This document shows, piece by piece, positions 1 through 34,779 of a stretch of 35,893 bases of DNA (within the stretch, counting starts at the first letter, position 1; each line of letters opens with the position of its first letter). Where the stretch lies: the IMG/VR virus record IMGVR_UViG_3300048919_000377, positions 1 through 35,893 of that record; one strand, written 5' to 3'. The notes under the pieces are model-generated. The model searched no databases and was not told the origin of the DNA. It was given only the letters and a program-made list of their open reading frames with translations. Source of the DNA: a virus. The position numbers and the translations under genes are program-made.

Positions 1-1
1 C

Positions 2-166
2 ATGCTGCTGATCTCGGAATCGGGCGGCCTGGTCGGCAACTATGCCGGCGAAGCGCGCCAGATGGAACAAGGCGAAGTGCTGGCCGGCAACCCGAAGGCA
101 TTTGCCCAGATGGTCCGCCTGCTGTCCCCGTACTCGCTGGACAACGCCAAGCCCGCGACGATCTGA
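2..166 (+). CDS. suhB: Inositol monophosphatase family protein SuhB, C-terminal end (partial)
   Basis: Only the last 54 codons are present, open from the window edge. The peptide contains GGLVGNYAGE, then a GEVLAGNPK segment and a QMVRLLSPYS tail, which resembles the C-terminus of SuhB-type inositol-1-monophosphatases, Mg-dependent phosphatases that in proteobacteria also act in rRNA antitermination. The catalytic metal-binding motifs lie upstream, outside the window, so activity cannot be judged. A strong intrinsic terminator follows the stop, so this gene ends its own transcription unit and belongs to the host flank. The family call is by recognition of the C-terminal pattern. Confidence 0.75.
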   Translation: MLLISESGGLVGNYAGEARQMEQGEVLAGNPKAFAQMVRLLSPYSLDNAKPATI

Positions 167-187
167 GCGTTTTCGTTTGCGCGCAAG

Positions 188-220
188 ACGCCCGCCAACC
201 CGGCGGGCGTTTTTGTTTTT
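188..220 (+). terminator. Rho-independent terminator after suhB
   Basis: A 9-bp perfect stem (ACGCCCGCC / GGCGGGCGT) with a 5-base loop is followed directly by TTTTGTTTTT. It starts about 20 bases after the suhB stop and separates suhB from the next gene. Confidence 0.9.
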
Positions 221-325
221 GCGCCCAGCCTCCGACGGCAGGGCCACGATGATCCAGGTCAAGACCACCGCACCCGGGGTTACTCAAAATAGGTAATTCG
301 ATGCACCTTTTTGAGGAGGCCCCAT

Positions 326-541
326 ATGTTCCCCGAGTACCGCGACCAGATTTCCTTGCTGAAGACGCAGGACGCCCATTTCGCACGGCTGTTCAACCTG
401 CACAATCAGCTGGACCACGAGATCAGCAACATGGAAGCCGGCATCGTGCGCGGCACGCCGCTGGAGATCGAGCGCCTCAAGAAGGAAAAGCTCCAGCTCA
501 AGGACCAGCTCTACGCCATCCTGCGCAAGGCGCACGCCTGA
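326..541 (+). CDS. YdcH family protein (DUF465)
   Basis: A 71-aa, strongly helical and charged protein starting MFPEYRDQIS, with a central LHNQLDHEI segment and a C-terminal EIERLKKEKLQLKDQL helix. This is the usual layout and length of the small DUF465/YdcH family, whose biochemical role is not established. The ATG at 326 is chosen because a GAGGAGG ribosome binding site ends 6 bases upstream; the frame is open to a TTG at 311, but that codon precedes the ribosome binding site. The stop lies one base before the polyphosphate kinase start, so the two are probably co-transcribed. Confidence 0.85.
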   Translation: MFPEYRDQISLLKTQDAHFARLFNLHNQLDHEISNMEAGIVRGTPLEIERLKKEKLQLKDQLYAILRKAHA

Positions 542-542
542 C

Positions 543-1637
543 ATGGCAGGAACCGTCCACGACGACACCCTGCCCGGAGCAGTCCGCGCCACGGCACGCG
601 GCGACGTGCTGCCCACCAACACCGCCCGCTCGGCCGAACGCAATGAAGTGAACGATGCCGTCGACGCGGCCGTGCAGCTCGCGGCCAGCAGCCTGCAAGA
701 CATCATGTCCCGGCAGGACAACGACGGCGTGCTCGACGCCATCCGCACGCTGATGGATGGCCTGTCGCCGGACGAGGCCGGGCAGTTGCGCAGCCTGATC
801 CTCGAAGGCGACCCGGGCGCCTGGCAAGCCGGCAGGAAGCGGCACCCCGACGAAGAACTGTCGGCCGGCTGGCGCGAAGGCGCCTATCCGTACCAGAATC
901 TGATGTCGCGCCGCAATTACGAGAAGCAGAAGTACCGCCTGCAGGTGGAACTTCTGAAGCTGCAGGCCTGGGTGCGCGAGACGGGCCAGCGCGTGGTGAT
1001 CGTATTCGAAGGCCGCGACGCGGCCGGCAAGGGCGGCACCATCAAACGCTTCATGGAACACATGAATCCGCGTGGCGCGCGCGTGGTGGCGCTCGAGAAG
1101 CCCACCGAGTCTGAGCGCGGCCAGTGGTACTTCCAGCGCTACGTCCAGCACCTGCCCTCGGCCGGCGAAATCGTCCTGTTCGACCGCTCCTGGTACAACC
1201 GCGCCGGCGTCGAGCATGTGATGGGCTTCTGCACGCCGCAGCAGTACCAGGACTTCCTGCAGCAGGCACCCGAATTCGAGCGCCACCTGGTCCGCAGCGG
1301 CATCCACCTGTTCAAGTTCTGGTTCTCCGTCAGCCGGCAAGAGCAGCGGCGACGCTTCAAGGAGCGCGAAGTCCATCCGCTCAAGCAATGGAAGCTCAGT
1401 CCGGTCGACATCGCCTCGCTCGACAAGTGGGAAGCCTACACCCGCGCCAAGGAAGCGATGTTCGCCCACACGGACACGGCCGACGCACCGTGGACCGTGA
1501 TCCGTTCCGATTGCAAGAAGCGCGCGCGGCTGAACGCGTTGCGATTCATCCTGTCGCGCTTTCCCTATGCCAACCGCGACACCACCGCGATCGGACAGGC
1601 CGACCCGCTGATCGTCGGACGCGCGATCGCAAACTGA
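543..1637 (+). CDS. ppk2: Polyphosphate kinase 2 (PPK2 family)
   Basis: This 364-aa protein transfers phosphate between inorganic polyphosphate and nucleotides in the cytoplasm. A Walker A motif (FEGRDAAGKGGT, about residues 155-166), a Walker B-like FDRSWYNR (about 213-220) and a lid region with RRFKERE (about 270-276) are all present and in family order, together with the KxxGTIKRF segment after the P-loop. The first 100 or so residues form a variable N-terminal extension, common in long betaproteobacterial PPK2 proteins. Whether the preferred acceptor is ADP, GDP or NMP cannot be read from the motifs. It directly follows the DUF465 gene with a one-base gap. Confidence 0.92.
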   Translation: MAGTVHDDTLPGAVRATARGDVLPTNTARSAERNEVNDAVDAAVQLAASSLQDIMSRQDNDGVLDAIRTLMDGLSPDEAGQLRSLILEGDPGAWQAGRKRHPDEELSAGWREGAYPYQNLMSRRNYEKQKYRLQVELLKLQAWVRETGQRVVIVFEGRDAAGKGGTIKRFMEHMNPRGARVVALEKPTESERGQWYFQRYVQHLPSAGEIVLFDRSWYNRAGVEHVMGFCTPQQYQDFLQQAPEFERHLVRSGIHLFKFWFSVSRQEQRRRFKEREVHPLKQWKLSPVDIASLDKWEAYTRAKEAMFAHTDTADAPWTVIRSDCKKRARLNALRFILSRFPYANRDTTAIGQADPLIVGRAIAN

Positions 1638-1681
1638 CCTCCATCCCTCTCACTCTTCCGTCATAGAAAAAAAGGCAATCC

Positions 1682-2116
1682 ATGTTCAAGCACGTCCTGC
1701 TCCCGGTTGATGGCTCTGATCTTTCGCACAAGGCTGTTTCCGCCGCCATCGAATTCGCACGCGCGACCGGCGCCCGGCTGACGCCCTATATGTGCGTGGA
1801 AGAATATCCCTACGTCCTGTCGACCGATTCCAGCCACGAAAAGCGGGACGTATTCAAGCAACGCGTGGAAGCGGCTGCCAGGCAGGAACTGTCGCGCATC
1901 GAGGCCGCGGCAGCACTGGCCGGCGTGCCGTGCACCGGACACGTCTCCACGGCGGCCGCACCATTCCGCGGGATCATCAACAGTGCAGAGGATCTCGGCT
2001 GCGACGTCATCTTCATGGCCTCGCATGGCCGCAGCGGCATCGCCGGCCTGCTGCTCGGCAGCGAGACACAGAAGGTACTGACGCACAGTGCGGTCCCCGT
2101 GCTGGTGTTCCGCTGA
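1682..2116 (+). CDS. Universal stress protein (UspA family)
   Basis: A 144-aa single-domain Usp protein. It begins with the typical first strand and loop MFKHVLLPVDGSD and ends with the ATP-binding signature GRSGIAGLLLGSET followed by AVPVLVF, so it belongs to the nucleotide-binding Usp subgroup. A start-proximal AAAGGCAATCC lies before the ATG. It follows the polyphosphate kinase by 44 bases in the same direction, which fits a stress-linked unit. The substrate or partner is unknown, as for most Usp proteins. This is the last intact host gene on the left side of the element. Confidence 0.9.
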   Translation: MFKHVLLPVDGSDLSHKAVSAAIEFARATGARLTPYMCVEEYPYVLSTDSSHEKRDVFKQRVEAAARQELSRIEAAAALAGVPCTGHVSTAAAPFRGIINSAEDLGCDVIFMASHGRSGIAGLLLGSETQKVLTHSAVPVLVFR

Positions 2117-2158
2117 TACGGTCACTGCGCCCTTGACAGCACCGGCCTCTATGGCCGC

Positions 2159-2186
2159 GCCCGGCATATCGGTTGCCATGCCGGGC
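2159..2186 (+). terminator. Inverted repeat after the Usp gene, possible terminator
   Basis: A perfect 9-bp inverted repeat (GCCCGGCAT / ATGCCGGGC) with a 10-base loop lies 42 bases after the universal stress protein stop. There is no T-run after it, so intrinsic termination is doubtful. The rest of the 2117-2383 stretch holds no gene; it is the leader of the mutS fragment. Confidence 0.4.
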
Positions 2187-2383
2187 CTCACCACGATTTC
2201 CCGACCTCGCCCAATGCGGCCACAAGCCCGCCTGCGGTAAACTCCCTGCTTTGGCCGCCCGAACACAATTCGGGCCGCATCCGCACGCCGCGGAACCCCA
2301 TGCCGACGAAGAGACGGCAACGACCCGCAACGCCGTACGCCACGCGTTGCCCGCGTTGCCGCGCGGCCATGCCAGACAAGGGA

Positions 2384-2470
2384 ATGCAGGAGAAAATAGA
2401 ATTGAATCAGGAAGTTGCAAAACCCCTTGCGGAGAAGCACACCCCCATGATGCAGCAGCACATGTACTAA
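2384..2470 (+). pseudogene. mutS: MutS N-terminal fragment, truncated at the element junction
   Basis: A 28-codon frame contains AEKHTPMMQQ near its end. HTPMMQQ followed by YLR is the highly conserved entry into domain I of the mismatch-repair protein MutS (E. coli has AHTPMMQQYLRLK). Here the match stops after MMQQ: the next codons read HMY and then TAA. The start is uncertain: ATG at 2384 or 2369, or TTG at 2402, which has the best-spaced AGGAG. The whole ATPase and mismatch-binding body is missing from the window. The simplest reading is that the element integrated in the 5' end of mutS. Alternatively it is a short attachment-site duplication with an intact mutS restored at the other end. 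Confidence 0.75.
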
Positions 2471-2475
2471 GCGCT
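2438..2475. other. Proposed left attachment junction (attL) in mutS
   Basis: Host-like mutS sequence encoding HTPMMQQ changes to unrelated sequence within a few bases of 2458. The crossover core should lie in or just before the ATGATGCAGCAG segment (2447-2458). No second copy of this 12-mer was noticed near the right end of the window, so the partner site must be outside. No integrase is visible from which to infer the recombinase type. Confidence 0.5.
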
Positions 2476-2555
2476 ACGAGGCCCTGGTAGCCAACCTACG
2501 CCAAAACCCACGCACTAGCATTGCTTGCAGCGCGACCCAAAAAGAGAAGAATCAA

Positions 2556-3737
2556 ATGAGCGAAAATACGACGCAAGATCGTTTCCGGTCAAAGGTCATG
2601 TTCGGTGGAGTGGAACAGTCCTTCCCTGACATCCAAGCCTTCTCGGACTGGACAGCTGGCTTAGTCAGCGAATGGCAATGGACAGGATCAGACGCCACTG
2701 GCTCGCCCTTTTGGCAACGCCTAGGGCCGCCGCTGCAAAGTGCGCAGTCGCTTCTAAGTCAGGCATTGCAAAACGTGCACGGAAACGCCGACCATACCGC
2801 CAACCTCATGCAGCAGGCGCGCATGCAAATTGAGAACACTTTTAGCGGGACTACGGTGCTCTCGGATCGGTCGGCGCATTCATTTGTTCAAGACATACGC
2901 GACCGCGTCCCTGAGTTGGCCGGCAGCATAGTTTGCTTGCTCGCCGGGGTCGAGCCAAACATTCACTCACACACAACGCTTGCGCGAGCTGTATTTGAAG
3001 TCGAGCTATACCGCAGGGGCTTCAATGCGCTGGATCCAGCGACTGATGCATTAAAGGCGCTCGAGACTGAACATAGAACGGCCATTTCGAACCTCGATGA
3101 GGCGCGCCAAAATGCATTAATTAGTCACCGTCTCTTCATGGAGTCGATGACTAACAACGATGCGGAAAATCAACGGGCTATTTCTGAGACGAATCACCAG
3201 CGCGCGGAGGCCTGGAGCAAGCTTCTGAGCAATGGTGAAGACCGTCTAAGTCGCCTTGAGACGACTTACGATGCGCACATGGCCCTTAGCAAGCCAGCTG
3301 CCTACTGGACCCGGAAGAGAATGCAACATCGAATTGCCTCCGGGGTGCTTGGGGTTTTGCTCGTGGCTGCGATGACCGGCCTCAGCACTTTGCTCTACTC
3401 GGAACTCAATCAGCTGGCCCCGGTCCTCCAAGCACAACTGGCCGGACAGAAAACGGCCACACCGCTGCAACTGGGCACGCTTGTCGCATTCTCGACCGTT
3501 GGCTTTTGGTTCGTTCGGATATTGGTGAAGCTATTTCTCAGCCAAATTCATCTTGAGAATGACGCTTCCGAGCGAATTACTATGATCCGAACCTACTTAG
3601 CCTTGGCCCGCGGAGGAAAACTCAAAGATGACGACTTGAAGGCTATTGTGACCGCGGTGTTCCGTCCCACTGGAGATGGCATCGTTAAGGATGAAGGACT
3701 TTCCTTACCCCTGACCGAGCTCTTGTTGAAGAAGTAG
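2556..3737 (+). CDS. DUF6161-like membrane protein
   Basis: A 393-aa protein with a long soluble, partly coiled N-terminal part (about residues 165-245 rich in Glu, Gln and Ala), two hydrophobic segments (about 260-281 and 305-328), and a conserved-looking C-terminal tail with IRTYLALARGGKLKDDD and FRPTGDGIVKDEG. That tail is what I associate with the DUF6161 family, of unknown function; the assignment is from memory. Start: ATG at 2556 after AGAGAAG. It is the first gene inside the element and stands alone, with a lower GC content than the host genes. A surface-exclusion or defence role is possible but unsupported. Confidence 0.7.
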   Translation: MSENTTQDRFRSKVMFGGVEQSFPDIQAFSDWTAGLVSEWQWTGSDATGSPFWQRLGPPLQSAQSLLSQALQNVHGNADHTANLMQQARMQIENTFSGTTVLSDRSAHSFVQDIRDRVPELAGSIVCLLAGVEPNIHSHTTLARAVFEVELYRRGFNALDPATDALKALETEHRTAISNLDEARQNALISHRLFMESMTNNDAENQRAISETNHQRAEAWSKLLSNGEDRLSRLETTYDAHMALSKPAAYWTRKRMQHRIASGVLGVLLVAAMTGLSTLLYSELNQLAPVLQAQLAGQKTATPLQLGTLVAFSTVGFWFVRILVKLFLSQIHLENDASERITMIRTYLALARGGKLKDDDLKAIVTAVFRPTGDGIVKDEGLSLPLTELLLKK

Positions 3738-3747
3738 CGTCCGACGG

Positions 3748-3770
3748 GCCACGTAGCCAGACGACGTGGC
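3748..3770 (+). terminator. Hairpin after the DUF6161-like gene
   Basis: GCCACGT and ACGTGGC form a 7-bp stem with a 9-base loop 11 bases after the stop. No T-run follows, so it is only a weak terminator candidate. From here to 3911 no gene is supported. Confidence 0.3.
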
Positions 3771-3911
3771 TGCAACGTAGGCCAGACCCGCACTATCCGG
3801 GGCAGGCTCACGGACTTCTATGGCGCGGCGCACAAGGCCCAGCGCCAAGCCACCTCTGCCGCAACGTTGGGCACTCTTGTCACGGCCACTCCTTCTTTGC
3901 TGGCCAACCAC

Positions 3912-3941
3912 GAGCGCACTGTATATCCATACAGTGCGCTC
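3912..3941. promoter_or_regulatory. LexA-type SOS box 1
   Basis: The core CTGTATATCCATACAG (3919-3934) fits the CTG-N10-CAG consensus with an AT-rich centre. It lies in a longer palindrome with 13-bp perfect arms (GAGCGCACTGTAT / ATACAGTGCGCTC) around a 4-base centre. A TTGCTG at 3897-3902 could serve as a -35 element, with TATATC inside the box as -10, so LexA binding would occlude the promoter. This is inference from sequence only. Confidence 0.8.
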
Positions 3942-3970
3942 AAGCATTCCCCGGATGCCCCGGCGAACGG

Positions 3971-3994
3971 TGTACTGTGTTTACATACAGTACA
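3971..3994. promoter_or_regulatory. LexA-type SOS box 2
   Basis: The core CTGTGTTTACATACAG (3975-3990) again fits CTGT-N8-ACAG, with 8-bp perfect arms TGTACTGT / ACAGTACA. Its centre is 56 bases from the first box, and it ends 13 bases before the start codon of the next gene. Two boxes in tandem suggest tight SOS control. Confidence 0.8.
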
Positions 3995-4007
3995 TCAGGA
4001 CAACGCC

Positions 4008-4253
4008 ATGCTTCCCGAACCGGCCAACTGCCCCCTTTGCTCGGCTGCCGCTGAGCGCACACGAGCCGCCACGCGCGGCTTCCGCTACACCTGCCCAGCT
4101 TGCGGCACCTTCCATATCAGCCGTGTAGCGCTGGGCTGTCGCCACGACATCCCAGCATCGGCCCGTGAGGACATTCGACGGCTGCGTGCCTTTGGCTATA
4201 CGGCCAGAATTGACATCGACCGACAGCGCTCGGTGCGGGTAACCCCAGGTTGA
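4008..4253 (+). CDS. Small zinc-ribbon protein, first gene of an SOS cassette
   Basis: An 81-aa protein with CPLC (Cys8, Cys11) and CPAC (Cys29, Cys32), a four-cysteine zinc ribbon of the rubredoxin-knuckle type, followed by a basic helix-rich tail. The ATG at 4008 is preceded by AGGA at 7 bases. Longer in-frame starts exist but would run through the LexA box, so they are rejected. It lies directly behind two LexA-type boxes and overlaps the next gene by 4 bases, so it should be the first SOS-induced product of a three-gene unit ending in an SRAP protein. Nucleic-acid binding is plausible for such a ribbon but is not shown. Confidence 0.7.
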   Translation: MLPEPANCPLCSAAAERTRAATRGFRYTCPACGTFHISRVALGCRHDIPASAREDIRRLRAFGYTARIDIDRQRSVRVTPG

Positions 4254-4648
4254 GCCGTACCGTGCTGGGAGATTTCATAAGCCAAAGCCACCCCGCGCTG
4301 GCTCGAGACGAATTCCGGGATATCTGGACGCGGAACAGGTCGCCAGACGTACACGACTTGCTGTGGGAGATTGCCCGGCTACGCAATGTCGTGCTTCACT
4401 GCCACCACCATGCGGAACGATTTCACGACAAGCTCGCCGGAAACATTGAGTACGATTCCTGGCTCCGCGCTCTGCTGGACGAGCCATGCGTCGTCGAGGC
4501 ATTAGAACAGGACTACGGCAGCTTGATACCAGGAAGTCGTGGCCAGCGAGGTGAAGTGCGGCCGCCGGAACATGAGGAAAGGCTGGCGGAAATGAGACGC
4601 GCCAGCAACGCGAGAATCGCCGAGCGCCAAGCTCGAGCAAGGAGATAG
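4250..4648 (+). CDS. Hypothetical protein, second gene of the SOS cassette
   Basis: A 132-aa protein that I do not recognise. It looks mostly helical, with a Trp/Arg/His-rich middle (LLWEIARLRNVVLHCHHH) and a strongly charged C-terminus full of Arg, Glu and Ala. The frame opens with TTG at 4250, overlapping the previous stop as TTGA, with CCAGG just upstream; this arrangement suggests translational coupling. A GTG at 4262 is an alternative start. No signal peptide or membrane segment is seen. Its position between a zinc ribbon and an SRAP gene under LexA boxes suggests a DNA-damage role, by context only. Confidence 0.6.
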   Translation: MSRTVLGDFISQSHPALARDEFRDIWTRNRSPDVHDLLWEIARLRNVVLHCHHHAERFHDKLAGNIEYDSWLRALLDEPCVVEALEQDYGSLIPGSRGQRGEVRPPEHEERLAEMRRASNARIAERQARARR

Positions 4649-4651
4649 GCC

Positions 4652-5320
4652 ATGTGCGTCAACTACGCCCCCATCCAGCAGAAGATCCTCCGCGACATAT
4701 TCCTCGTCGAACCGCCTCAGGATCTCTGGAAACCTGAGACATGGCCGGACTACCCTGCTCCAATCGTGCGCGCACCGGACGGCGCTAGGGAGTGCGTTAC
4801 GGGATCGTTCAGCATGGTGCCGAAGAACCGGATTCCGCCACACGTGAAGAAGTACGACACGGCCAATGCCAAAGCCGAGACGATCGGATCACTGCGGTCC
4901 TACGCGTCCCACTGGAAGGCTGGTCAGCTCTGCCTTATCCCGGCTAACGGCTTCTACGAGCCGAACTATGAATCCGGTACGCCCGTGCGCTGGCGCATCG
5001 GCATGGCCGACGGCGAGCCTTTCGCCATTGCCGGCCTGTGGCGGGCGTGGCCGGACGGCGCCGTCTCGTTCACCATGCCGACCGTCAATGCCGACAGCCA
5101 CCCGCTGCTGAAGCGCTTCCACGCTCCCAACAAGGAAAAACGCGGCATCGTCATCCTGCCGCGAGAGGACTGGGATGAGTGGCTGGCCTGCCGGGATCCC
5201 GAGCGTGCCCGAACGTTTCTGCGCCTCCTGCCGGCCGATCAAATGACGGCCGAGCCGGCACCGGTCGAACGCCGCGCGAAGGCCGAGCCGGCTGCCGAGG
5301 GCGCCCAACTCCTCCTCTGA
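4652..5320 (+). CDS. yedK: SOS response-associated peptidase (SRAP, YedK/HMCES family)
   Basis: A 222-aa SRAP-domain protein. The family forms a covalent thiazolidine link through Cys2 to abasic sites in single-stranded DNA and so shields them. Visible: Met1-Cys2 for Cys exposure, an ANAKAET segment (Asn72; family ANARxET), IPANGFYEP (Glu103) and a His near residue 157 in RFHAP, which replaces the usual HxRMP wording, so the His assignment is less certain. AAGGAG lies 7 bases before the ATG. It ends the SOS cassette and is convergent with the response regulator, with 15 bases between the stops. Confidence 0.88.
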   Translation: MCVNYAPIQQKILRDIFLVEPPQDLWKPETWPDYPAPIVRAPDGARECVTGSFSMVPKNRIPPHVKKYDTANAKAETIGSLRSYASHWKAGQLCLIPANGFYEPNYESGTPVRWRIGMADGEPFAIAGLWRAWPDGAVSFTMPTVNADSHPLLKRFHAPNKEKRGIVILPREDWDEWLACRDPERARTFLRLLPADQMTAEPAPVERRAKAEPAAEGAQLLL

Positions 5321-5335
5321 CATGGTAGCTTCGCG

Positions 5336-5944
5336 TCACTCGATTCCATGCGCGCGTGCCAGATCGACAAGTTCAACGAGCGAGCTGGCGCCAAGCTTGC
5401 GCATGATGCGGATCTTGTTGCCGCTGACGGTTTTTGCAGATATCGACAGCTTTTTTCCGATGATGCTAGGTGGCGTACATTCGACCAGCAGCCTGAGCAA
5501 CGCCATCTCCCGATCGCTCAAGCGATCGAACCATTGAGGGTCCCGACCTTGCCTCGCAATCGGTGATTCGTCCGGGGGAAACAACTGATAGCCTGCCAAC
5601 ACCATTCCAGCGCTGCGTGCAATGTCCGGCAGCTGTTCCGTCTTGCTGAGGCATCCCCATGCACCAGCGCGGCGAGCCCGCCAGCTGTAGATGCTAGTCC
5701 GCGAGTCAGACATCACGACAACCCGAGCTGGGACCGGCTCGCGCAAGAGCCTGCGCGTCAACTCGATGCCATCGGCGCCGCCCAGGTTCACGTCTACGAA
5801 CGCCAAATCCATCGCGATGGCACGGGCTAGCCGCATGGCATCTACAGCGGTTGTTGTGCCATGCACCCTCCCCAGACAGCTCAGTGAGCCCGACAGGGCC
5901 GCAATTACCAGGGGATGGTCATCGACGATCAGGATGTTTTTCAT
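5336..5944 (-). CDS. Orphan response regulator, REC plus LuxR-type HTH
   Basis: A 202-aa DNA-binding response regulator. The receiver domain has MKNILIVDDHP (Asp8, Asp9), the phospho-acceptor Asp51 in FVDVNL, Ser79 in VVMSDS and Lys101 in LSK. The C-terminal LuxR/FixJ HTH begins LSDREMALLRLL and ends KTVSGNKIRIMRKLG. The ATG at 5944 has AAGGAAGAG just upstream; longer frames to 6016 lack this. No sensor kinase is nearby, so it may answer to a host kinase or act unphosphorylated. It faces the SOS cassette. Layout resembles BvgA/EvgA-type regulators; target genes are unknown. Confidence 0.88.
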   Translation of the reverse strand: MKNILIVDDHPLVIAALSGSLSCLGRVHGTTTAVDAMRLARAIAMDLAFVDVNLGGADGIELTRRLLREPVPARVVVMSDSRTSIYSWRARRAGAWGCLSKTEQLPDIARSAGMVLAGYQLFPPDESPIARQGRDPQWFDRLSDREMALLRLLVECTPPSIIGKKLSISAKTVSGNKIRIMRKLGASSLVELVDLARAHGIE

Positions 5945-6141
5945 TGCTCTTCCTTCATTGAACTGAGATCCAATTCTGGGAAAGCTTGAGTGCGGTCGGA
6001 ATGCGACAACTCTCAATACGGCGCGCCAGGGCCGCGCCTACTACGGATGCGTCCTAGTTTCTCCCTTGAAGCACCCCAAAAGGGGGGGAAATTGCCTGCA
6101 CCTTGGCTGGAAAATTCCGATGTCGTGCCTGGATTCTTCCC

Positions 6142-6252
6142 GGCAAGCCGCGCCGCTCGCCTGGATCGATATACCGCTCCGGTGAACGGTCCCGCGACTG
6201 GTTGAAGATCAAGCGGCCGGGGGCGGTGCCGCCGGAGAGGTTCAAACGGTAA
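6142..6252 (+). pseudogene. Remnant of an ATP-dependent DNA ligase (C-terminal piece)
   Basis: Thirty-six codons read GKPRRSPGSIYRSGERSRDW and continue LKIKRPGAVPPERFKR before TAA. YRSG followed by SxDWLKIK is the motif V region at the end of the adenylation domain of ATP-dependent DNA ligases, including LigD-type enzymes. The glutamate-led strand that should precede it is absent, and the upstream frame has no ligase similarity that I can see, so only a scrap of the gene is left. Its nearness to an SRAP gene fits debris of a repair cluster. The rest of 5945-6376 shows no other supported gene. Confidence 0.55.
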
Positions 6253-6376
6253 GACGTGGAGGGAAGATCGTCGCTTGTCGACCCACTGCGTTCACTGGAC
6301 CATGCGTCTCGGGGGAGCGTTTTTCAATGATCTGTCCTATGGTAAGCACACCGGGGAAACGGCATGGAGGGCAAGA

Positions 6377-6567
6377 ATGGCTAGTACTGAACATAACCAA
6401 GGCCCGAGCGACGGCGGTGGCAAGACGGGCGGAGTTGACTCCCCTGATGGCGGAAAGCCGCCTAAGTCGGACGAAGAAAGTGGTCCGAAGGCGGTGAGGA
6501 CAACGGCGGTTCAGTGCCTGGCGGGGGTAAGGTGAATGAGGCGCCTACGAAGGCCGGGGCGCCATAG
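6377..6567 (+). pseudogene. Gly/Pro/Lys-rich small ORF with a probable frameshift
   Basis: From ATG 6377 the frame encodes a hydrophilic, Gly-rich peptide (GPSDGGGKTGG, SPDGGKPPKSDEESGPK). At about 6490 the same composition continues in the -1 frame (GGEDNGGSVPGGGK, then TAG at 6567), while the original frame turns into a different composition and stops at 6535. One lost G in the run at 6490-6491 would explain this. GAGG lies 7 bases before the ATG. No homology is recognised; it may be a decayed low-complexity protein or a chance ORF. Confidence 0.35.
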
Positions 6568-6979
6568 AGGGCAAAGCTGGCAGCTGATATCGCTTTGCGG
6601 ATAGCCATGGCGGACCGGCTGCCGTTCCGGATGAGTTCCATATTTTTACCTCCGCCTAGCAGCTAACGCGCTGAGGCACGGCCCAAGCGTTCATTGCCTT
6701 CGCGGCCAACTCCCTCCAATGGCGCTCGCCATATTCACCGCCGCCGTTATCTGAGGTGGCAAAAAGCCCCCCCTCGTTTCAAATCTGAAACAGATTTAAC
6801 GCGAACGCTTAAATTTGTATTTTCATAAAATTCTTGTTTTTCCGTAATTTTTTGAACTAAAGTTCTATGAGTCTTGCACTGCCTGACCTGTGAAAGGATT
6901 ACTCGCGCACGTCTCGAGTTTTTCGCTAATGATATTTAAACATGATTTGATGGTGAAATAATAAGGAGGGAAGATAAAA
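6568..6979. promoter_or_regulatory. AT-rich leader with overlapping inverted repeats
   Basis: No gene is supported here. Base composition drops sharply from about 6770. Two overlapping inverted repeats occur: GTTTCA-AATC-TGAAAC (6776-6791) and AAATCTG-AAA-CAGATTT (6781-6797, 7-bp arms). They could be an operator for the downstream peptidase cassette. Several AT-rich hexamers could be promoter elements, but none stands out. Confidence 0.35.
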
Positions 6980-7474
6980 ATGAAAATCGATACTTCAGTT
7001 TCAATCTTAAGCGCACTGCAAAGCAATGAGACAAAAGACGGCTTCACCGAAATACGCGAAGGCTTCATTACAAACCCCAACGTCGGCTCAATTACTCATG
7101 AGTTCACTTTCAAGAGCGATCCTTGGACAGTACCTAGTACAGCCGGTGCAACTCTAATTATTTTTCGAGATATTAAATTGTCGGTGACCAAGGTATTCAA
7201 CCCCCTTAATCACACCGATTTATTCTACGCCCTCACGTGGACACCTGAGTATCATTACAGCGCAGGGAAAGACGGACACAATGACTATCCGGAATGTCCG
7301 CTTAAATTTATGGATAACAACTATGCAAAATTGGAATCCGTAGAAAAACGACTGGAATTTCCTTGCAATGCCAGTGGACGTCAGTCATTAACATCAAAAG
7401 GCGATCCCGATTTCTTCGACCGAATAGCACACGTTTCTTTCACCTTACCGCCCTGGACGTGGATTGCTTGTTGA
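6980..7474 (+). CDS. Hypothetical 164-aa protein, partner gene of a papain-like peptidase
   Basis: I do not recognise this protein. It starts MKIDTSVSILSALQ, has no signal peptide or membrane helix, and seems rich in beta strands with aromatic residues (TWTPEYHY, TLPPWTW). It ends in Cys. A strong AAGGAGG lies 10 bases before the ATG. It is AT-rich compared with host and phage genes and is followed after 16 bases by the peptidase gene with its own ribosome binding site, so the two probably form one unit. It could be an inhibitor, substrate, carrier or immunity protein for the peptidase; none of these is shown by sequence. Confidence 0.7.
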   Translation: MKIDTSVSILSALQSNETKDGFTEIREGFITNPNVGSITHEFTFKSDPWTVPSTAGATLIIFRDIKLSVTKVFNPLNHTDLFYALTWTPEYHYSAGKDGHNDYPECPLKFMDNNYAKLESVEKRLEFPCNASGRQSLTSKGDPDFFDRIAHVSFTLPPWTWIAC

Positions 7475-7490
7475 GATTTTGGAGAAGAAA

Positions 7491-8405
7491 ATGATTTCTC
7501 CCGCCGCAAATTCGATCGTGAGACCGACAAGCGTGTCTGAGGTCAAAGAATTAAACCTGCCTTATTTACCACCGGACTTAAGCGTCGCATTGCAAGCGGC
7601 TCCCAAAATGAGCCTACGAAGCCAACAATCGAACGTGAAAAATCAAATGCGGGGAGATTTCTGTACAACTTTTGCGGCACTTGCGGGCTTCGAGTTCGTT
7701 ATCAAAAATGGTCGTGGCGGCACGGCTTCTATCCCTGACGTCGATCTCTCCGAGGCCCATGCAACTTATGCTGGGGAAAAGCGCCACGGCGACTGCCAGC
7801 CGGGTATTCCGATATGGGTCATCATGGAAGCCATTTCATACAATGGTGTGGTATTGGAGGATGTGTGGCAATTTGATCAACTACAAACGTGTGCACCCAA
7901 TCCACCAGACAGAAGCAATGCCGCCTGGTTTACTCTAAAGCAATATGCCCTCGTCTCTCTAGTAGAGCATGACGAGATAATGAAAAATATAAAAAAAGTT
8001 GCTAATGGAGAGTCAGCGACCATTTTTTATAGCTCTGACATCCTCCGGAATTCGCTAGCAACTCAAAATACTCCCTGCATAGTCGATATACCCCTTTTCC
8101 CCAATGCTGGATGGGAAAGCAGCAATGGTGATGTCCACCTCCCGACGTCAGCGAATGCGTCAGGATGGCTTGACGGAAACTCAGCCGGTGATGTCGACTG
8201 GCATTGTATTTGCGTAACGGGTTACGACGATACTACGCGCCGTTTTGAGTTCAAAAATAGTTGGGGGGCGATGTGGGGCGACATTGGATACGGAACAATT
8301 TCATATGAGTACATTAGTGCTTTTAACAGGACCGTTTTTGATTTTCGGGGATCATATGTCCGGTGGGTTGGTCCGCCTCCAACTCCTTGGGGAGGTGCCT
8401 TCTAG
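7491..8405 (+). CDS. Papain-family (C1) cysteine peptidase
   Basis: A 304-aa C1-type peptidase with canonical active-site wording: VKNQMRGDFCTTFA (oxyanion Gln52, nucleophile Cys58), DWHCICVTGYDD (His238) and KNSWGAMWGDIGYG (Asn256). The pattern LSEAH and then an ISYNGVVLEDVWQFD segment also fits bacterial C1A enzymes. Only about 57 residues precede Cys58, so there is no typical long inhibitory propeptide, and no signal peptide is visible; a cytoplasmic enzyme is likely. The ATG at 7491 has GGAG 6 bases upstream; the frame is open upstream to a TTG but without a ribosome binding site. AT-rich, and opposite in direction to the late operon, like a lysogenic-conversion gene. Confidence 0.88.
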   Translation: MISPAANSIVRPTSVSEVKELNLPYLPPDLSVALQAAPKMSLRSQQSNVKNQMRGDFCTTFAALAGFEFVIKNGRGGTASIPDVDLSEAHATYAGEKRHGDCQPGIPIWVIMEAISYNGVVLEDVWQFDQLQTCAPNPPDRSNAAWFTLKQYALVSLVEHDEIMKNIKKVANGESATIFYSSDILRNSLATQNTPCIVDIPLFPNAGWESSNGDVHLPTSANASGWLDGNSAGDVDWHCICVTGYDDTTRRFEFKNSWGAMWGDIGYGTISYEYISAFNRTVFDFRGSYVRWVGPPPTPWGGAF

Positions 8406-8813
8406 TTACCGCCGGCTCGAACGTTATTTGCGAGACGTGGGCCGTTTCGGTGGCGGCCGGTGACTTTCTAATCCAAAGGCCTGTCTCTGGACATGCAAGC
8501 TTTCATCGGCAGACACGACTTCGCTCGCCGTCCGCCTGGCTTTTGCGGCGTCGCGCCTACTCTGGGTAGCCACGCCCTCGGCCTGGTGTGCGTAGCTAGA
8601 GCTTCCTTTTCGCCCCGGCAAGAATCCGCTGGAAGGATTTCTTCCTGTTTTGTTTGCCCGCATGGGGGGCTGCCAAATTCGAAATCCAGCGACCTTCACG
8701 GTGCGGATGAGACGTTTGAGCGTCTGATTGACGGTATCTTCGGATGGCGCGCTTTCTGGCCGATCTCAGCCGTAGGATATCGGCCTTCGCGTAGCTCAAT
8801 ATTGAAGCCGTTC
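8406..8813. other. Non-coding stretch between peptidase cassette and late operon
   Basis: Frames of up to about 110 codons occur on both strands, but none has a credible ribosome binding site, recognisable family or phage-like composition. GC content returns to the high value of the phage. I see no clear terminator with a T-run. The two transcription units converge here. Confidence 0.5.
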
Positions 8814-9359
8814 TTACCGTGCCTTGGACATTAAGGCATCGTAGCTTCGTTCGCAGGCTTGGCCGGCAATGTGGGCTGCGTCAGCATACTCCGCCAGGAC
8901 TCCCGCTCTCTCGTCAATCCGGCTGAGCACGTCGGCAAGCATTCTGCTGGCGTCGAAGGCTGGCGCGCTGTCACCTGGAGCGGCGGCACAGACGGCGTCA
9001 CCACGGCCGGCAAGGGCTGAGGCTTGCTGGCGCAGGCCGACAGCAGCAGCATGGGCAGCACGAGCATCAGCGCGCGCATCTTCGGCTTCTTTCTTGGCAG
9101 CATTGGCAATTCCGGCTTGTGCCGCGGTGCGGCGTTGTTCCTCGGCGCGCCCTGCCTCGACGGCTTGCGCGAGTTGCTGAGCGCGTTCCGCGCGATCCTG
9201 CTGACGCGCGGCGTGTAGGTCGGCGATGTCTGCGCCCAGTCGCCAGCCGTTGACCAGCCAGCCAACGGCAAACAGGCAAACTGCACCGGCCACTGTCACA
9301 ATGGCACGCCACGGCAGCGCCTTTAGTGAAGCGCGAATGGTGGCGGCAATGGGAATCAT
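8814..9359 (-). CDS. Rz-like i-spanin (inner-membrane lysis protein)
   Basis: A 181-aa protein with an N-terminal membrane anchor (about residues 16-36, AIVTVAGAVCLFAVGWLVNG) followed by a long Ala/Arg/Gln-rich periplasmic coiled coil. This is the layout of phage Rz proteins, which fuse inner and outer membranes in the last step of lysis. The ATG overlaps the endolysin stop as ATGA, giving translational coupling. A second frame inside it encodes the matching lipoprotein. It is the last gene of the late operon. Confidence 0.8.
   Translation of the reverse strand: MIPIAATIRASLKALPWRAIVTVAGAVCLFAVGWLVNGWRLGADIADLHAARQQDRAERAQQLAQAVEAGRAEEQRRTAAQAGIANAAKKEAEDARADARAAHAAAVGLRQQASALAGRGDAVCAAAPGDSAPAFDASRMLADVLSRIDERAGVLAEYADAAHIAGQACERSYDALMSKAR
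8831..9079 (-). CDS. Rz1-like o-spanin lipoprotein nested in Rz
   Basis: An 82-aa frame lies entirely inside the Rz-like gene in another frame. It begins MRALMLVLPMLLLSACAS, a lipoprotein signal with lipobox LSAC, and is Pro-rich afterwards (PLPAVVTPSVPPL), as Rz1 proteins are. AAGAAG and GAAG precede the ATG. The mature lipoprotein would sit in the outer membrane and pair with Rz. Nested Rz1 genes are well known in phages; the lipobox and proline content make this call firm although the frame is short. Confidence 0.82.
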   Translation of the reverse strand: MRALMLVLPMLLLSACASKPQPLPAVVTPSVPPLQVTARQPSTPAECLPTCSAGLTRERESWRSMLTQPTLPAKPANEATMP

Positions 9360-9862
9360 GCGGCGGATCTCCCCAGCGCGATGGCGTCCGCGTCGGTAGC
9401 GCCTGCGAACAGCGCGCACTCCGCCGCCCGTCGACGCACAAGGCCCTTCAGCACCGCACCACCGGCCTTGTTCCAAAGAGAGAACTGCTCCATGGCGGCA
9501 TCGAAGTCGCCCGCGTTCACCCTACGCAGCAGCGATGATGGATTGCCATTCTTGAGCGTTACGAGGCCGTCCTTCTCGCCCTTCTTCCCTGGGCCAACGT
9601 TGAAGCAGAACGACACAAGGGCGTCGAACTGGCCCTGCGTCAAGGGCACCTTTACCGCAGCCCAGACGATCCGCTCGTGTTCGGCCACGTCGTGCACGAG
9701 CAGCTCGTCAGCGCGTGCTTGCGAAAGCATCATGCCCAGGCGCACATCTGACCCGGTGTGCCCCCAGCCGATGGTAGGGATGCCAGCGCTGTCGCGATAC
9801 GCCGACAGGCGGCAGCTCTCGAAATATTTGATGACCGCGAGGCCATTGCTGGAGATCTTCAT
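9356..9862 (-). CDS. Phage lysozyme (GH24 endolysin)
   Basis: A 168-aa T4-lysozyme-type muramidase that cuts peptidoglycan during host lysis. The catalytic spacing Glu15-8-Asp24-5-Thr30 is seen in YFESCRLSAYRDSAGIPTIGWGHT (quoted from two adjoining segments YFESCRLSAYRDS and AGIPTIGWGHT), and FNVGPGKKG plus the SLLRRVNAGDF segment fit the C-terminal lobe. There is no N-terminal signal-arrest sequence, so release should depend on a holin, which fits the two membrane proteins upstream. A stem-loop lies just before the gene and its stop overlaps the Rz start. Confidence 0.92.
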   Translation of the reverse strand: MKISSNGLAVIKYFESCRLSAYRDSAGIPTIGWGHTGSDVRLGMMLSQARADELLVHDVAEHERIVWAAVKVPLTQGQFDALVSFCFNVGPGKKGEKDGLVTLKNGNPSSLLRRVNAGDFDAAMEQFSLWNKAGGAVLKGLVRRRAAECALFAGATDADAIALGRSAA

Positions 9863-9884
9863 GTGGACTCCGCAGAAATGAAAA

Positions 9885-9904
9885 TGGCCACCCGAAGGTG
9901 GCCA
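9885..9904 (-). terminator. Stem-loop before the endolysin gene
   Basis: An 8-bp perfect stem TGGCCACC / GGTGGCCA with, on the - strand, a TTCG tetraloop, followed by TTTTCATTTC. It lies between the holin and the endolysin. It could be a leaky terminator or an RNA-stabilising 5' hairpin. Confidence 0.6.
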
Positions 9905-9928
9905 GCATGAAAACGCGTGCGTCAGCAG

Positions 9929-10273
9929 CTATGAGTGGGCACGCCGGTCCAGCACGACACGCACCGCATCCAGAATCACGGAGATATCGCCGCGGGTAAT
10001 CCACACGAGCCACATCACGATGACGTTCACGGCAACCTCTGTCGGCTCGACCGGCGTGTAATACAGCCCGCACCAGACCCGCGCGGCCAACACGCCGTAG
10101 ACGGCCACGAAGGCATAGCGCGAGAGCCGCGCATGCAAGTCCAGCGATCCGCCACCTTTCGGCTGAGAGAACACCAGGATCAGCGCGATCACTGTCGCGA
10201 GCAGCCCGTTTGATAGCAGCAGCACCAGGTCCACAACGCCTCGGGCGCCAAAGTACAAAGTCATTTCATTCAT
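9929..10273 (-). CDS. Holin-like membrane protein 1
   Basis: A 114-aa protein with three predicted membrane segments (about residues 12-35, 51-70 and 76-93) and a charged C-terminus (VVLDRRAHS). Size, topology and place directly before the endolysin fit a phage holin, which forms lesions that let the endolysin reach the wall. It overlaps the upstream membrane gene by 8 bases. An alternative is that one of the two membrane proteins is an antiholin; sequence alone does not settle which. Confidence 0.7.
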   Translation of the reverse strand: MNEMTLYFGARGVVDLVLLLSNGLLATVIALILVFSQPKGGGSLDLHARLSRYAFVAVYGVLAARVWCGLYYTPVEPTEVAVNVIVMWLVWITRGDISVILDAVRVVLDRRAHS

Positions 10274-10649
10274 GACGATCCCTTCCGATAATGCGCTCCA
10301 CCAGCCTGTTCAGGATCTGGGGTAGAGCCGTCTCCAGCCAGTCGAGCACAATGACGGCAACACCCACAACGGAAGCCGCCGAAATGAATGCAGCCAACCA
10401 CGCTGGCATCCAGGCCACAGCTGTGCTCACTGCAGGCGTGACTGCATATCCGCCAACGAGCGAGATGCAGAAATAGAGAATCTTCTTGAGCCACGACGGC
10501 TCTTTGCTGCGCAAGAGGAACAACATCGCGCCGCAGAACACCCCGCTCAGCACTCCAATCTCAGGCCGGACACCCAGTGCACTCAACGTCAGCCCGCTCG
10601 CAATACCCGTAACCACGGCAGCGCCGGCTGACGAAGTAGGTTCAAGCAT
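10266..10649 (-). CDS. Holin-like membrane protein 2
   Basis: A 127-aa protein with about four hydrophobic segments (8-28, 31-47, 53-72, 82-103) and a short charged tail (VERIIGRDRHE). The ATG at 10649 is preceded by GGAGGGG at 2-3 bases; an in-frame ATG 12 bases upstream overlaps that ribosome binding site and is less likely. It resembles putative phage holins (PF16931-like, by layout). With its partner it makes a two-gene membrane pair ahead of the endolysin, possibly holin and antiholin. Confidence 0.68.
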   Translation of the reverse strand: MLEPTSSAGAAVVTGIASGLTLSALGVRPEIGVLSGVFCGAMLFLLRSKEPSWLKKILYFCISLVGGYAVTPAVSTAVAWMPAWLAAFISAASVVGVAVIVLDWLETALPQILNRLVERIIGRDRHE

Positions 10650-10667
10650 TTCCCCCTCCAAATGCGA

Positions 10668-10687
10668 AGGCCGCCAGAAGGCGGCCT
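10668..10687 (-). terminator. Stem-loop before the first holin-like gene
   Basis: An 8-bp perfect stem AGGCCGCC / GGCGGCCT with a 4-base loop, followed on the - strand by TCGCATTTGG. It separates the tail-fiber genes from the lysis genes. It has the same form as three other intergenic hairpins of the operon. Confidence 0.6.
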
Positions 10688-10720
10688 GTTGTGATTCGCG
10701 CGCCGGGGCAAGCGCGTGGT

Positions 10721-10798
10721 CTAGTCTTCCAAGATCTTCGCCATCGCGGCCGACCAGGGCACCAATCGTTTGGGCTCAATATGGTCATCACTCGGCAT
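10721..10798 (-). CDS. Possible 25-aa small ORF
   Basis: ATG at 10798 opens a 25-codon frame (MPSDDHIEPKRLVPWSAAMA, then KILED) that overlaps the end of the tail-fiber assembly gene and stops before the stem-loop. GGAG is only 2 bases from the ATG. It fills an otherwise empty gap between two operon genes, but a chance ORF is quite possible. Confidence 0.3.
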   Translation of the reverse strand: MPSDDHIEPKRLVPWSAAMAKILED

Positions 10799-11339
10799 CA
10801 CTCCACGTAATTGACTGAATCTCGGAAGGGCTGTTGGCGCGATCGATCCGGGCCATCAGCGCTACACGCTTGCCTACCACCGCGCCACATGCCGAAAGAT
10901 ATTCAGCGGACCTGGTAGTTACTGTCGAAGCAAGCTCTGCCACGGATATCCCACATCCCGCGGAAATGGCACTGAGCATCGGAGTTGATACTTCCGGATC
11001 CGACATGAACGCTTGCGCCTCTGCGAGCTGCTGACTCCACGTCGCGATCTCCCGGTTTGGATACGCGGCTGTGAGCGCAGCCAGCTCGTCTTCTGCCGCA
11101 GCATTCACTAGTGCCGCCTGCCGCACCTTCGCGTCGGCAAGCGTTTCCGCGATGGCCGCATCGGTGAATTTCCACTGCACCCCATCGCTGATTACATGCC
11201 AGCCGGCATGAGGCCGGGGAAATATCTCGGTAACTTCGACCCAGACAAGATCCGGATGAAACATTTGGGTCATGTCGCCGTCGGTTGAAAGTAGTTCTGC
11301 GACCATGCCTCCGTCAACGCGCGCGTATGTTCTCGGCAT
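10788..11339 (-). CDS. Tail fiber assembly-like protein (DUF4376-like domain)
   Basis: A 183-aa protein starting MPRTYARVDGGMVAEL. The N-terminal half has the FHPDLVWVEVT and WHVISDGVQWKF wording of Mu/P2-type fiber-associated proteins, and the helical half (about 62-180, from AAIAETLADAKVR) is like DUF4376. Such proteins help fold or cap the tail fiber encoded just upstream. Its ATG overlaps the fiber stop as TAATG, which fixes the start; a longer open frame reaching upstream inside the fiber gene is a shadow. Confidence 0.75.
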   Translation of the reverse strand: MPRTYARVDGGMVAELLSTDGDMTQMFHPDLVWVEVTEIFPRPHAGWHVISDGVQWKFTDAAIAETLADAKVRQAALVNAAAEDELAALTAAYPNREIATWSQQLAEAQAFMSDPEVSTPMLSAISAGCGISVAELASTVTTRSAEYLSACGAVVGKRVALMARIDRANSPSEIQSITWSDAE

Positions 11340-13138
11340 TAGCTCCACTCCCTCACGATCACAATGCCCGGCGCCCCGCGACCGGCAGCGCCACCCCCGC
11401 TTTCCGTTGGCTTCGTCCGGCCATATCCCCCTGCACCGCCGGATCCTCTGCCGGACCCATCTGAAAAAGGCGTAGGGCCGGAGCCATAGAAGCAGCCCAT
11501 GCCGCCCGCGCCAAACTTCGAGCTCCCACCGCTCGTGTAGTTGCCTATGTTTGTCGCTACAACCGGAGCCGAACCCTGGCCCCTTAGATTGAGATCGCCA
11601 CCTACGGCAGTGCCTCCTGCCGTACCAAGCAAAGGGATCGATGACAGGGATGCCTGCCCTCCTACGCCGCCGCCAGCCGATGCGACATTTCCAAAGGAAG
11701 TCGTGCCCCCCGGTGAGCCGTTTGCGCCGTAAGCTGTCGGCCCTGGCCCGCCGGCGCCGACCGTGATGGGGACAATGTCCGGTAGTGCGCTGGCTATCCT
11801 TCTGAACCATACGTACCCCCCCGCCCCGCCGCCGACGGCTGAACCGGTAGTGCCCCAGTTGCCGCAACCGCCAGAGCCGCCTCCGCCAACCAACTCAGCT
11901 TCAACGAGCGCGGGGTTGTTGGTTGCCTTGCGCCAGGGCGGATTCGAGATGAAATGCTCACCGGTTCCCGCCTCGAGAAACTTGATCGAACTACCCCATG
12001 GCGTCGCCGAGACCTGAAACCTTACGGCCGGCGTTGGATATGGCAGCCCCGTCGGCTCTTGTACCGAAACGACAAAGTACGTTTCGCCGGAAATGAGTCT
12101 CGAAGGCAATTCCCCGGTGCTACTGAACACCACGGGCGAGCCTACGAGCGGCGCAACCAACGAACAGGTGATATCCGGCGAACCGGCCGTGAAATCTACG
12201 GATTGCGCCACGGTGGAGTACACCGTCTCTGCGAGCAAGACCGACGGCGGCTGGACCGGCGGAGGCGCAAATTGAAGGTTTAGATTGCCCTGCTCGTCTT
12301 CGATGGCCTTTAGGAACTTCCCATCTGCCGCTGTGGTGCCATCCACGGGATAGCCGGTGATCCTTGTCGCGTTCGCTTTCGACGCGGCGCCAAAAGGATC
12401 GTAGAGGACGTCCGAACGCTCCTTAGTCAAATATTGCTGGTGCGGATCGGTCTTTGCCTCATGGGCCTGCACGGCACTCGACGCCGCGCCACTCTCGTCA
12501 GCGCCAACTTGCTCCGCCGAAATGCCCGTAAGCCGGCTGCCATCAACAGCGGGCAATGCCCCATTGGTGTCAAGCTGAACGAGATCCCCGGGCCTTGCGC
12601 CAATACTTGGCTTGTTCAGGATCTCCGCGAGCCCGTCAGTCGCAGCCCAGTCCGCATTGACCTGAGCTGCCGGGATGGTGGGCTTATTGAGGATTCGGCC
12701 TGGGCCGCTCGTGGCGTTCCAGTCTGCGTTCAACGGTACCCAGTTCCTCGCAGAGCCATCCGTCGCATCCGGGTTGGTCTTGTTGCTGTCGGCCTGATTC
12801 GACCAGTAGCTCTTGCCGTCCGCCGCGAGCAGTACGGCACCCTTCGGATAGCCGTCGACCTCCGGGGCAGCTGCGAACCCCTGGTCAAACGAGAACATCC
12901 CCCCGGCCTGCACCCACCGTACGGTGAGCGAAACCAGGTAAAGCGCACCATTCACGTCCTTGCCATCGGCAGGTTTCCCACCGAATGCGGCAGGACGCAT
13001 AGTGACGTCAGGAAACCCCAGCCGGAGGGACGCGGCATTGGGAGAAGAACCTGCCGAAGGGCTATCCGGGATCTCGTTGCGCAGCCCGGCCGCCGCAAAC
13101 GGCGTGACCAGGAGTCTCGGTTGCTCATTCGATTTCAT
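11339..13138 (-). CDS. Tail fiber / receptor-binding protein with Gly-rich tip
   Basis: A 599-aa fiber. After an N-terminal attachment part (about 1-130) come imperfect repeats of the form ADWxAxxGxxxILNKPxI (about 139-177), common in phage tail fibers, then a linker and a C-terminal region (about residues 415-590) packed with Gly-rich runs such as VGGGGSGGCGNWG and GGSSKFGAGGMG, ending GIVIVREWS. Gly-rich tips of this kind resemble polyglycine-II adhesin domains that contact the host receptor. Immediately followed by its probable chaperone with overlapping stop and start. Confidence 0.85.
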   Translation of the reverse strand: MKSNEQPRLLVTPFAAAGLRNEIPDSPSAGSSPNAASLRLGFPDVTMRPAAFGGKPADGKDVNGALYLVSLTVRWVQAGGMFSFDQGFAAAPEVDGYPKGAVLLAADGKSYWSNQADSNKTNPDATDGSARNWVPLNADWNATSGPGRILNKPTIPAAQVNADWAATDGLAEILNKPSIGARPGDLVQLDTNGALPAVDGSRLTGISAEQVGADESGAASSAVQAHEAKTDPHQQYLTKERSDVLYDPFGAASKANATRITGYPVDGTTAADGKFLKAIEDEQGNLNLQFAPPPVQPPSVLLAETVYSTVAQSVDFTAGSPDITCSLVAPLVGSPVVFSSTGELPSRLISGETYFVVSVQEPTGLPYPTPAVRFQVSATPWGSSIKFLEAGTGEHFISNPPWRKATNNPALVEAELVGGGGSGGCGNWGTTGSAVGGGAGGYVWFRRIASALPDIVPITVGAGGPGPTAYGANGSPGGTTSFGNVASAGGGVGGQASLSSIPLLGTAGGTAVGGDLNLRGQGSAPVVATNIGNYTSGGSSKFGAGGMGCFYGSGPTPFSDGSGRGSGGAGGYGRTKPTESGGGAAGRGAPGIVIVREWS

Positions 13139-33859: not shown

Positions 33860-33879
33860 GCTGCACCCCCTTGCCCATA

Positions 33880-33917
33880 GCAAACTTTGTTTGCATATGT
33901 GTTAGCTTTTTGCTAAC
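33880..33917. promoter_or_regulatory. Two inverted repeats in the MTase/toxin divergent region
   Basis: GCAAAC-TTT-GTTTGC (33880-33894) and GTTAGC-TTTTT-GCTAAC (33901-33917) lie side by side between the methyltransferase and the toxin start. They fit operators for the XRE antitoxin and perhaps for control of the late operon head. Base composition is AT-rich, suitable for promoters. Confidence 0.65.

Positions 33918-34703: not shown

Positions 34704-34779
<76 letters not shown>

What the first reader, a model, noticed from the sequence alone, without database searches (positions are those of the whole stretch)
6776..8405. AT-rich two-gene cassette: unknown 164-aa protein plus intact papain-like peptidase
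The peptidase keeps Gln, Cys, His and Asn active-site motifs of C1 enzymes but has no long propeptide or signal, so an active cytoplasmic protease would need control. The unknown partner just upstream is a natural candidate inhibitor, substrate or sensor. Low GC, solitary position and opposite strand to the late operon mark it as a separately acquired unit, possibly a defence or toxin-immunity system.
Basis: partly seen in the sequence, partly recalled or inferred. Interest (0 to 1): 0.78.

Follow-up and report, generated by a model that had tools for sequence, protein, structure and literature searches.

The report
Prophage papain-like peptidase with orphan partner
A prophage in a Cupriavidus-like soil bacterium carries, in a spot where its relatives keep other or no extra genes, an acquired two-gene unit: an intact intracellular papain-like protein-cutting enzyme and a partner gene unlike anything known, which may be its inhibitor.

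Summary
At 6980-7474 (+) there is a 164-aa ORF and, 16 nt downstream at 7491-8405 (+), a 304-aa papain-like peptidase. The unit is AT-rich (45% vs 62% GC) and on the strand opposite to the late operon. The peptidase is a xylellain-type C1A enzyme (best PDB match by sequence and fold 3ois) with Gln52, Cys58, His238 and Asn256 intact and no signal peptide. Such enzymes are already known in tailed phages. The host is a Cupriavidus relative. Related Cupriavidus prophages carry different genes, or none, between their ligase gene and Rz, so the unit is accessory cargo. Independent support came from elsewhere: in six related loci (one plasmid, two viral contigs, three Burkholderiaceae genomes) the peptidase is next to a chagasin-type (I42) inhibitor gene, and both I42 genes found in 2.9 million viral contigs sit directly behind a C1 peptidase. 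The partner here is not I42. Best reading: lysogen-expressed cargo, peptidase plus a non-homologous upstream regulator or inhibitor; a defence role is plausible but unproven.

The parts
6774..6804 (.). 14-nt inverted repeat with 3-nt spacer (79% complementary) where GC content drops; operator-like dyad, inferred
6776..6979 (+). AT-rich leader (33% GC) with promoter-like match TTTAAA-16-AATAAT at 6935-6962; the scan does not exceed chance
6980..7474 (+). P0002, 164-aa orphan protein, predicted all-beta at low confidence; ribosome-binding site AGGAGG at 6964-6969
7491..8405 (+). P0001, 304-aa xylellain-type C1A papain-like peptidase; Q52 (7644-7646), C58 (7662-7664), H238 (8202-8204), N256 (8256-8258); GGAG at 7481-7484
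6179..6252 (+). 3' remnant of the phage ATP-dependent DNA ligase gene that in related prophages marks the left edge of the cargo slot
8814..9386 (-). spanin/Rz-like gene (DUF2514; ORF called 8814-9476), last late gene, convergent with the cassette; right edge of the slot
2556..3737 (+). DUF6161 protein with AbiZ match; neighbouring accessory gene near the prophage left end

Best explanation
The unit is accessory (moron-type) cargo of a Cupriavidus prophage. It was acquired as an AT-rich block into the variable slot between the phage DNA-ligase gene and the Rz end of the late operon, and is read from its own leader on the opposite strand. It makes (i) an active, cytoplasmic, short xylellain-type C1A cysteine endopeptidase and (ii), first in the operon, a small beta-rich protein that controls it, most likely as a tight-binding inhibitor or sensor-inhibitor. 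Inhibitor-first order would let the regulator be present before the enzyme. In the lysogen the complex would be quiet; loss or displacement of the regulator, for instance on superinfection or stress, would free the peptidase to cut host or phage proteins. Shown: peptidase family, intact catalytic residues, gene order, cargo position, and inhibitor pairing in relatives. Inferred: that P0002 binds the peptidase, that the enzyme is toxic when free, and that the trigger is phage or stress.
For: Intact Q-C-H-N set and C1A fold: AF2 pLDDT 79.9, pTM 0.83; Foldseek top hit 3ois, E about 1e-16. No signal peptide. Tandem genes 16 nt apart with Shine-Dalgarno sites. Cargo slot: related Cupriavidus prophages have ligase-[variable]-Rz with a 218-aa, a 272-aa (weak HepT/DUF4145) or a 212-aa gene, or none (gap about 22 nt in L145). 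AbiZ-like gene in the same prophage end, PADLOC E 2e-13. Stand-alone C1A peptidases with an adjacent I42 inhibitor gene in 6 loci: downstream in L083, L100, L107, L152, L283; upstream, as here, in L108. No I42 in 1.68 Mb of control loci. Both viral-contig I42 genes found lie directly after a C1 peptidase. P0001 groups with mostly viral and plasmid peptidases, including two I42-paired ones. Published precedent: C10 proteases with contiguous, co-transcribed staphostatin-like inhibitors on mobile elements (PMC2873492).
Against: P0002 is not conserved next to any other C1 peptidase, is not I42 and has no solved or curated relative. Its model is weak (pLDDT 50) and finds no fold match. Most C1A loci (about 110 of 116) have no recognisable inhibitor beside them. 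The nearest relative, in C. taiwanensis, has different neighbours. PADLOC-DB does not recognise the pair. Promoter- and terminator-like sites do not exceed chance.
Confidence: 0.42

Rival explanations
1. The peptidase is ordinary horizontally moved cargo and the 164-aa ORF is an unrelated or non-functional orphan; there is no functional pair.
For: P0002 occurs nowhere else searched; an ORF of this length arises in 3.4% of shuffles of this AT-rich DNA; relatives of the peptidase have many different neighbours.
Against: Strong AGGAGG site, 16-nt spacing into the peptidase's own ribosome-binding site, and one AT-rich block confined to the two genes and leader.
Confidence: 0.27
2. The enzyme is a niche or lysogenic-conversion factor acting on plant or other environmental proteins, like xylellain-like peptidases of plant-vascular bacteria; P0002 is an accessory.
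For: Xylellain-like peptidases are proposed to act in plant colonisation, with a sister clade in endophytes and rhizobia (PMC12090721). The nearest relative of P0001 is on a plasmid of C. taiwanensis, which I recall as a legume symbiont.
Against: No signal peptide; nearest relatives after C. taiwanensis are phage and Bacillota-plasmid enzymes; no linked secretion genes in the window were noticed.
Confidence: 0.17
3. The peptidase assists lysis or release, as some phage C1 peptidases may.
For: Several viral relatives sit beside amidase, lysozyme, M23 or holin genes; one BFVD structural match is named peptidoglycan-binding-like; the cassette adjoins Rz.
Against: It is convergent with the late operon, AT-rich, absent from sister prophages that keep the lysis genes, and lacks an export signal.
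Confidence: 0.1

Closest known systems
Xylellain-type short C1A peptidases (PDB 3ois; phage-borne examples noted in PMC10380794)
   Same: Papain fold, Q-C-H-N catalytic set, short form without a long propeptide, found in tailed phages
   Different: Only about 21% identical over the structural alignment; GG before the catalytic His is replaced by DW; a tandem orphan gene upstream
C1A peptidase + I42 (chagasin) gene pairs (Priestia plasmid L083, viral contigs L152 and L283, Burkholderiaceae L100, L107, L108)
   Same: Related peptidase with a small neighbouring gene on the same strand, on mobile DNA in several cases
   Different: The neighbour in the window is longer (164 vs about 105 aa), upstream, and shows no I42 similarity
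Staphopain/staphostatin, SpeB/Spi and B. fragilis Bfp/Bfi protease-inhibitor operons (PMC2873492)
   Same: Papain-clan protease next to a small dedicated regulator, partly on mobile elements including a prophage
   Different: Those proteases are C47/C10, which I recall as exported with long propeptides; inhibitors are contiguous and of other families
Type II toxin-antitoxin operons
   Same: Two short tandem genes with the putative regulator first, on a mobile element
   Different: No toxicity or neutralisation shown; not in PADLOC-DB; partner not conserved
Prophage morons / lysis-proximal accessory genes
   Same: Extra, compositionally odd, oppositely transcribed genes absent from sister phages
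   Different: Nothing tested departs; cargo content is new

Membership tests
Peptidase family C1A, xylellain type | Catalytic Gln, Cys, His, Asn in papain order | tested here: met
   Q52, C58, H238, N256 aligned with relatives
Peptidase family C1A, xylellain type | Significant family profile match and papain fold closest to xylellain | tested here: met
   PF00112 E 1.9e-9; 3ois best by sequence and by fold
Peptidase family C1A, xylellain type | Short form: no signal peptide, no long propeptide | tested here: met
   About 40 residues precede the domain, 1-23 low confidence; no hydrophobic N-terminus
Peptidase family C1A, xylellain type | Peptidase activity | not testable with these tools
   needs enzyme assay, C58A control
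C1A peptidase + I42 inhibitor pair | Partner belongs to Inhibitor_I42 (PF09394) | tested here: not met
   No Pfam hit for P0002; hhalign prob 0.7 over one column; own HMM bits -1.8
Staphostatin or Spi type inhibitor pair | Partner recognisable as staphostatin or Spi | tested here: not met
   No Pfam, NCBIfam or PDB sequence match for P0002 of significance; fold comparison uninformative
Toxin-antitoxin system | Two adjacent co-directional genes with coupled spacing | tested here: met
   16 nt between stop and start, ribosome-binding site in the gap
Toxin-antitoxin system | Toxicity of one product neutralised by the other | not testable with these tools
   needs expression assays
Toxin-antitoxin system | Pair conserved across genomes | tested here: not met
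   P0002 beside none of 116 C1 loci
Known anti-phage defence system | Match to PADLOC-DB models | tested here: not met
   P0001 none; P0002 only E 0.019 and 0.061 short partial hits
Prophage moron / accessory cargo | Absent from sister prophages at the same position | tested here: met
   Ligase-Rz gap 22 nt to 0.98 kb with other or no genes vs 2.58 kb here
Prophage moron / accessory cargo | Own promoter and expression in the lysogen | tested here: inconclusive
   One promoter-like match, scan not above chance

The most novel reading that the evidence does not exclude
P0002 is the founder of a new family of proteinaceous cysteine-peptidase inhibitors, and the pair is a proteolytic toxin-antitoxin or abortive-infection unit whose chagasin-paired cousins on phages and plasmids use the same logic with a different inhibitor.
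Probability: 0.27. Interest if true: 0.68.

Novelty: new variant of a known kind. Interest (0 to 1): 0.45.

Why it matters
Short papain-like peptidases are recorded in tailed phages without, as far as the papers read here say, an assigned function or control mechanism. The recurrent C1A + I42 pairs on phages and plasmids, and a pair here with an unrelated partner in a prophage cargo slot, make it directly testable whether these enzymes are dosage-controlled intracellular toxins, defence effectors or niche factors. If P0002 inhibits the enzyme, it is a new inhibitor family.

Tried and rejected
Single-protein scans of genome contigs and viral contigs for either protein found nothing; phages and plasmids gave no P0002 match and only five distant P0001 matches. 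A weak P0002 hit in a Burkholderiaceae genome (L098/L101, E 0.003) proved to be an ORF antisense to a phage regulator region and was dropped. P0002 as I42: rejected. P0002 fold search: no match with E below 0.001; the model is too weak to use. A conserved partner among viral relatives: neighbour clusters were endonuclease-like, lysis or other phage genes, none like P0002. C. taiwanensis 130-aa neighbour vs P0002: no alignment. Rfam on 1-12000: nothing. A read-through fusion of both proteins for complex prediction was considered but not run: an orphan without an alignment would not give a usable interface.

Full report
Setting. The record is a virus contig. Its left 2.46 kb is host DNA: PPK2 at 543-1637 is 92% identical in protein to Cupriavidus pinatubonensis and 1-2457 aligns at 85% DNA identity with that chromosome, after which synteny stops. 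Terminase, portal, tape-measure, holin, endolysin and Rz-like genes follow on the minus strand, so this is one end of a prophage of a Cupriavidus relative.

Observation. Two plus-strand genes lie between a DNA-ligase remnant (6179-6252) and Rz: a 164-aa ORF (6980-7474) with AGGAGG upstream, and a 304-aa peptidase (7491-8405) with GGAG upstream, 16 nt apart. GC is 45.2% against 61.9% for the window; the leader is 33%. A 14-nt inverted repeat starts at 6774 where GC drops. The peptidase length is far beyond chance; the 164-aa ORF alone is not (17 of 500 shuffles).

Peptidase. Pfam C1 E 1.9e-9. The best solved relative is xylellain 3ois by sequence and by Foldseek on an AF2 model with pLDDT 79.9 and pTM 0.83. 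Q52, C58, H238 and N256 are intact. It has no export signal. A departure from most relatives is DW instead of GG before the catalytic His. The nearest relative is an unannotated ORF on a C. taiwanensis plasmid, 31% identical; only one of 60 Cupriavidus genomes has a relative, and its flanking ORFs match those of that plasmid. A tree joins P0001 and the plasmid ORF (99/86) inside a mostly viral and plasmid group (P0001 has a long branch, so placement is rough). Xylellain-type enzymes acquired by tailed phages are already reported (PMC10380794).

Partner. P0002 has no significant match in Pfam, NCBIfam, PADLOC, PHROGs or PDB sequences, nor in viral contigs, phages, plasmids, 300 family genomes or 369 class genomes; its single genome hit was spurious. 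A single-sequence model is all-beta but poor and matches nothing. It is not beside any of the C1 loci collected.

What relatives show. Neighbours of C1A relatives include Inhibitor_I42 genes: three of 45 neighbours scanned by Pfam, identified as L083, L100 and L152 by alignment and HMM, and L107 and L108 by a derived HMM. All are adjacent and on the same strand as the peptidase; four are downstream and one upstream. The same kind of HMM found none in 1.68 Mb of control loci (the HMM was built from these five sequences, so recall elsewhere may be limited). Turning the search round, an I42 profile scan of viral contigs found two loci, both directly behind a C1 peptidase, one of them new (L283, whose peptidase reading frame is interrupted). 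The pattern is real but patchy: about 5 of 116 loci, some of them near-duplicates.

Slot. Matching Cupriavidus prophages show SRAP, a phage ATP-dependent ligase, then a variable gap before Rz: a 218-aa gene (L132), a 272-aa gene with weak DUF4145/HepT similarity (L133), a 212-aa gene (L149), or nothing (L145). The window keeps only the ligase 3' end. An AbiZ-like DUF6161 gene lies at 2556-3737. Defence-like company is suggestive, not proof.

Mechanism. Shown: gene order, family, intact active site, cargo position, inhibitor pairing in cousins. Inferred: P0002 binds and restrains the peptidase; the free enzyme is harmful; the trigger is superinfection or stress.

Novelty. The peptidase is a new member of a known kind. 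The arrangement is a new variant. Whether P0002 is a new inhibitor family is open.

Noticed in passing
window 2556-3737 (+): DUF6161 protein matching the abortive-infection protein AbiZ (PADLOC E 2e-13), near the left end of the prophage.
   Followed up: partly
L083, L100, L107, L108, L152, L283: Short C1A peptidase genes directly beside chagasin-type I42 inhibitor genes on plasmid, viral and bacterial DNA; both viral-contig I42 genes found follow a C1 peptidase.
   Followed up: yes
L283 3115-3984 and 4004-4324: C1 peptidase in a viral contig split over two frames with an intact I42 gene behind it; decayed gene or sequencing error, not told apart.
   Followed up: no
L132, L133, L141, L145, L149 between ligase and Rz: Variable cargo slot in Cupriavidus prophages with different unknown small genes, one weakly HepT/DUF4145-like.
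   Followed up: partly
window 5336-6016 (-): LuxR-type response regulator sits where sister prophages have the body of a DNA ligase gene; only the ligase 3' end remains.
   Followed up: no
window 8458-8541: Stretch shared at 77-81% with a Cupriavidus sp. EM10 plasmid and another Cupriavidus genome; nature unknown.
   Followed up: partly
window 32486-33883 (-) and 34704-34779 (-): ParB-like plus DNA methyltransferase protein and a tRNA-Met gene beside the packaging genes.
   Followed up: no
L082 4668-8693: C. taiwanensis plasmid island with lipoprotein, unannotated C1 peptidase, 130-aa unknown and transglutaminase-like genes, flanked by transposase, group II intron and integrase genes.
   Followed up: partly
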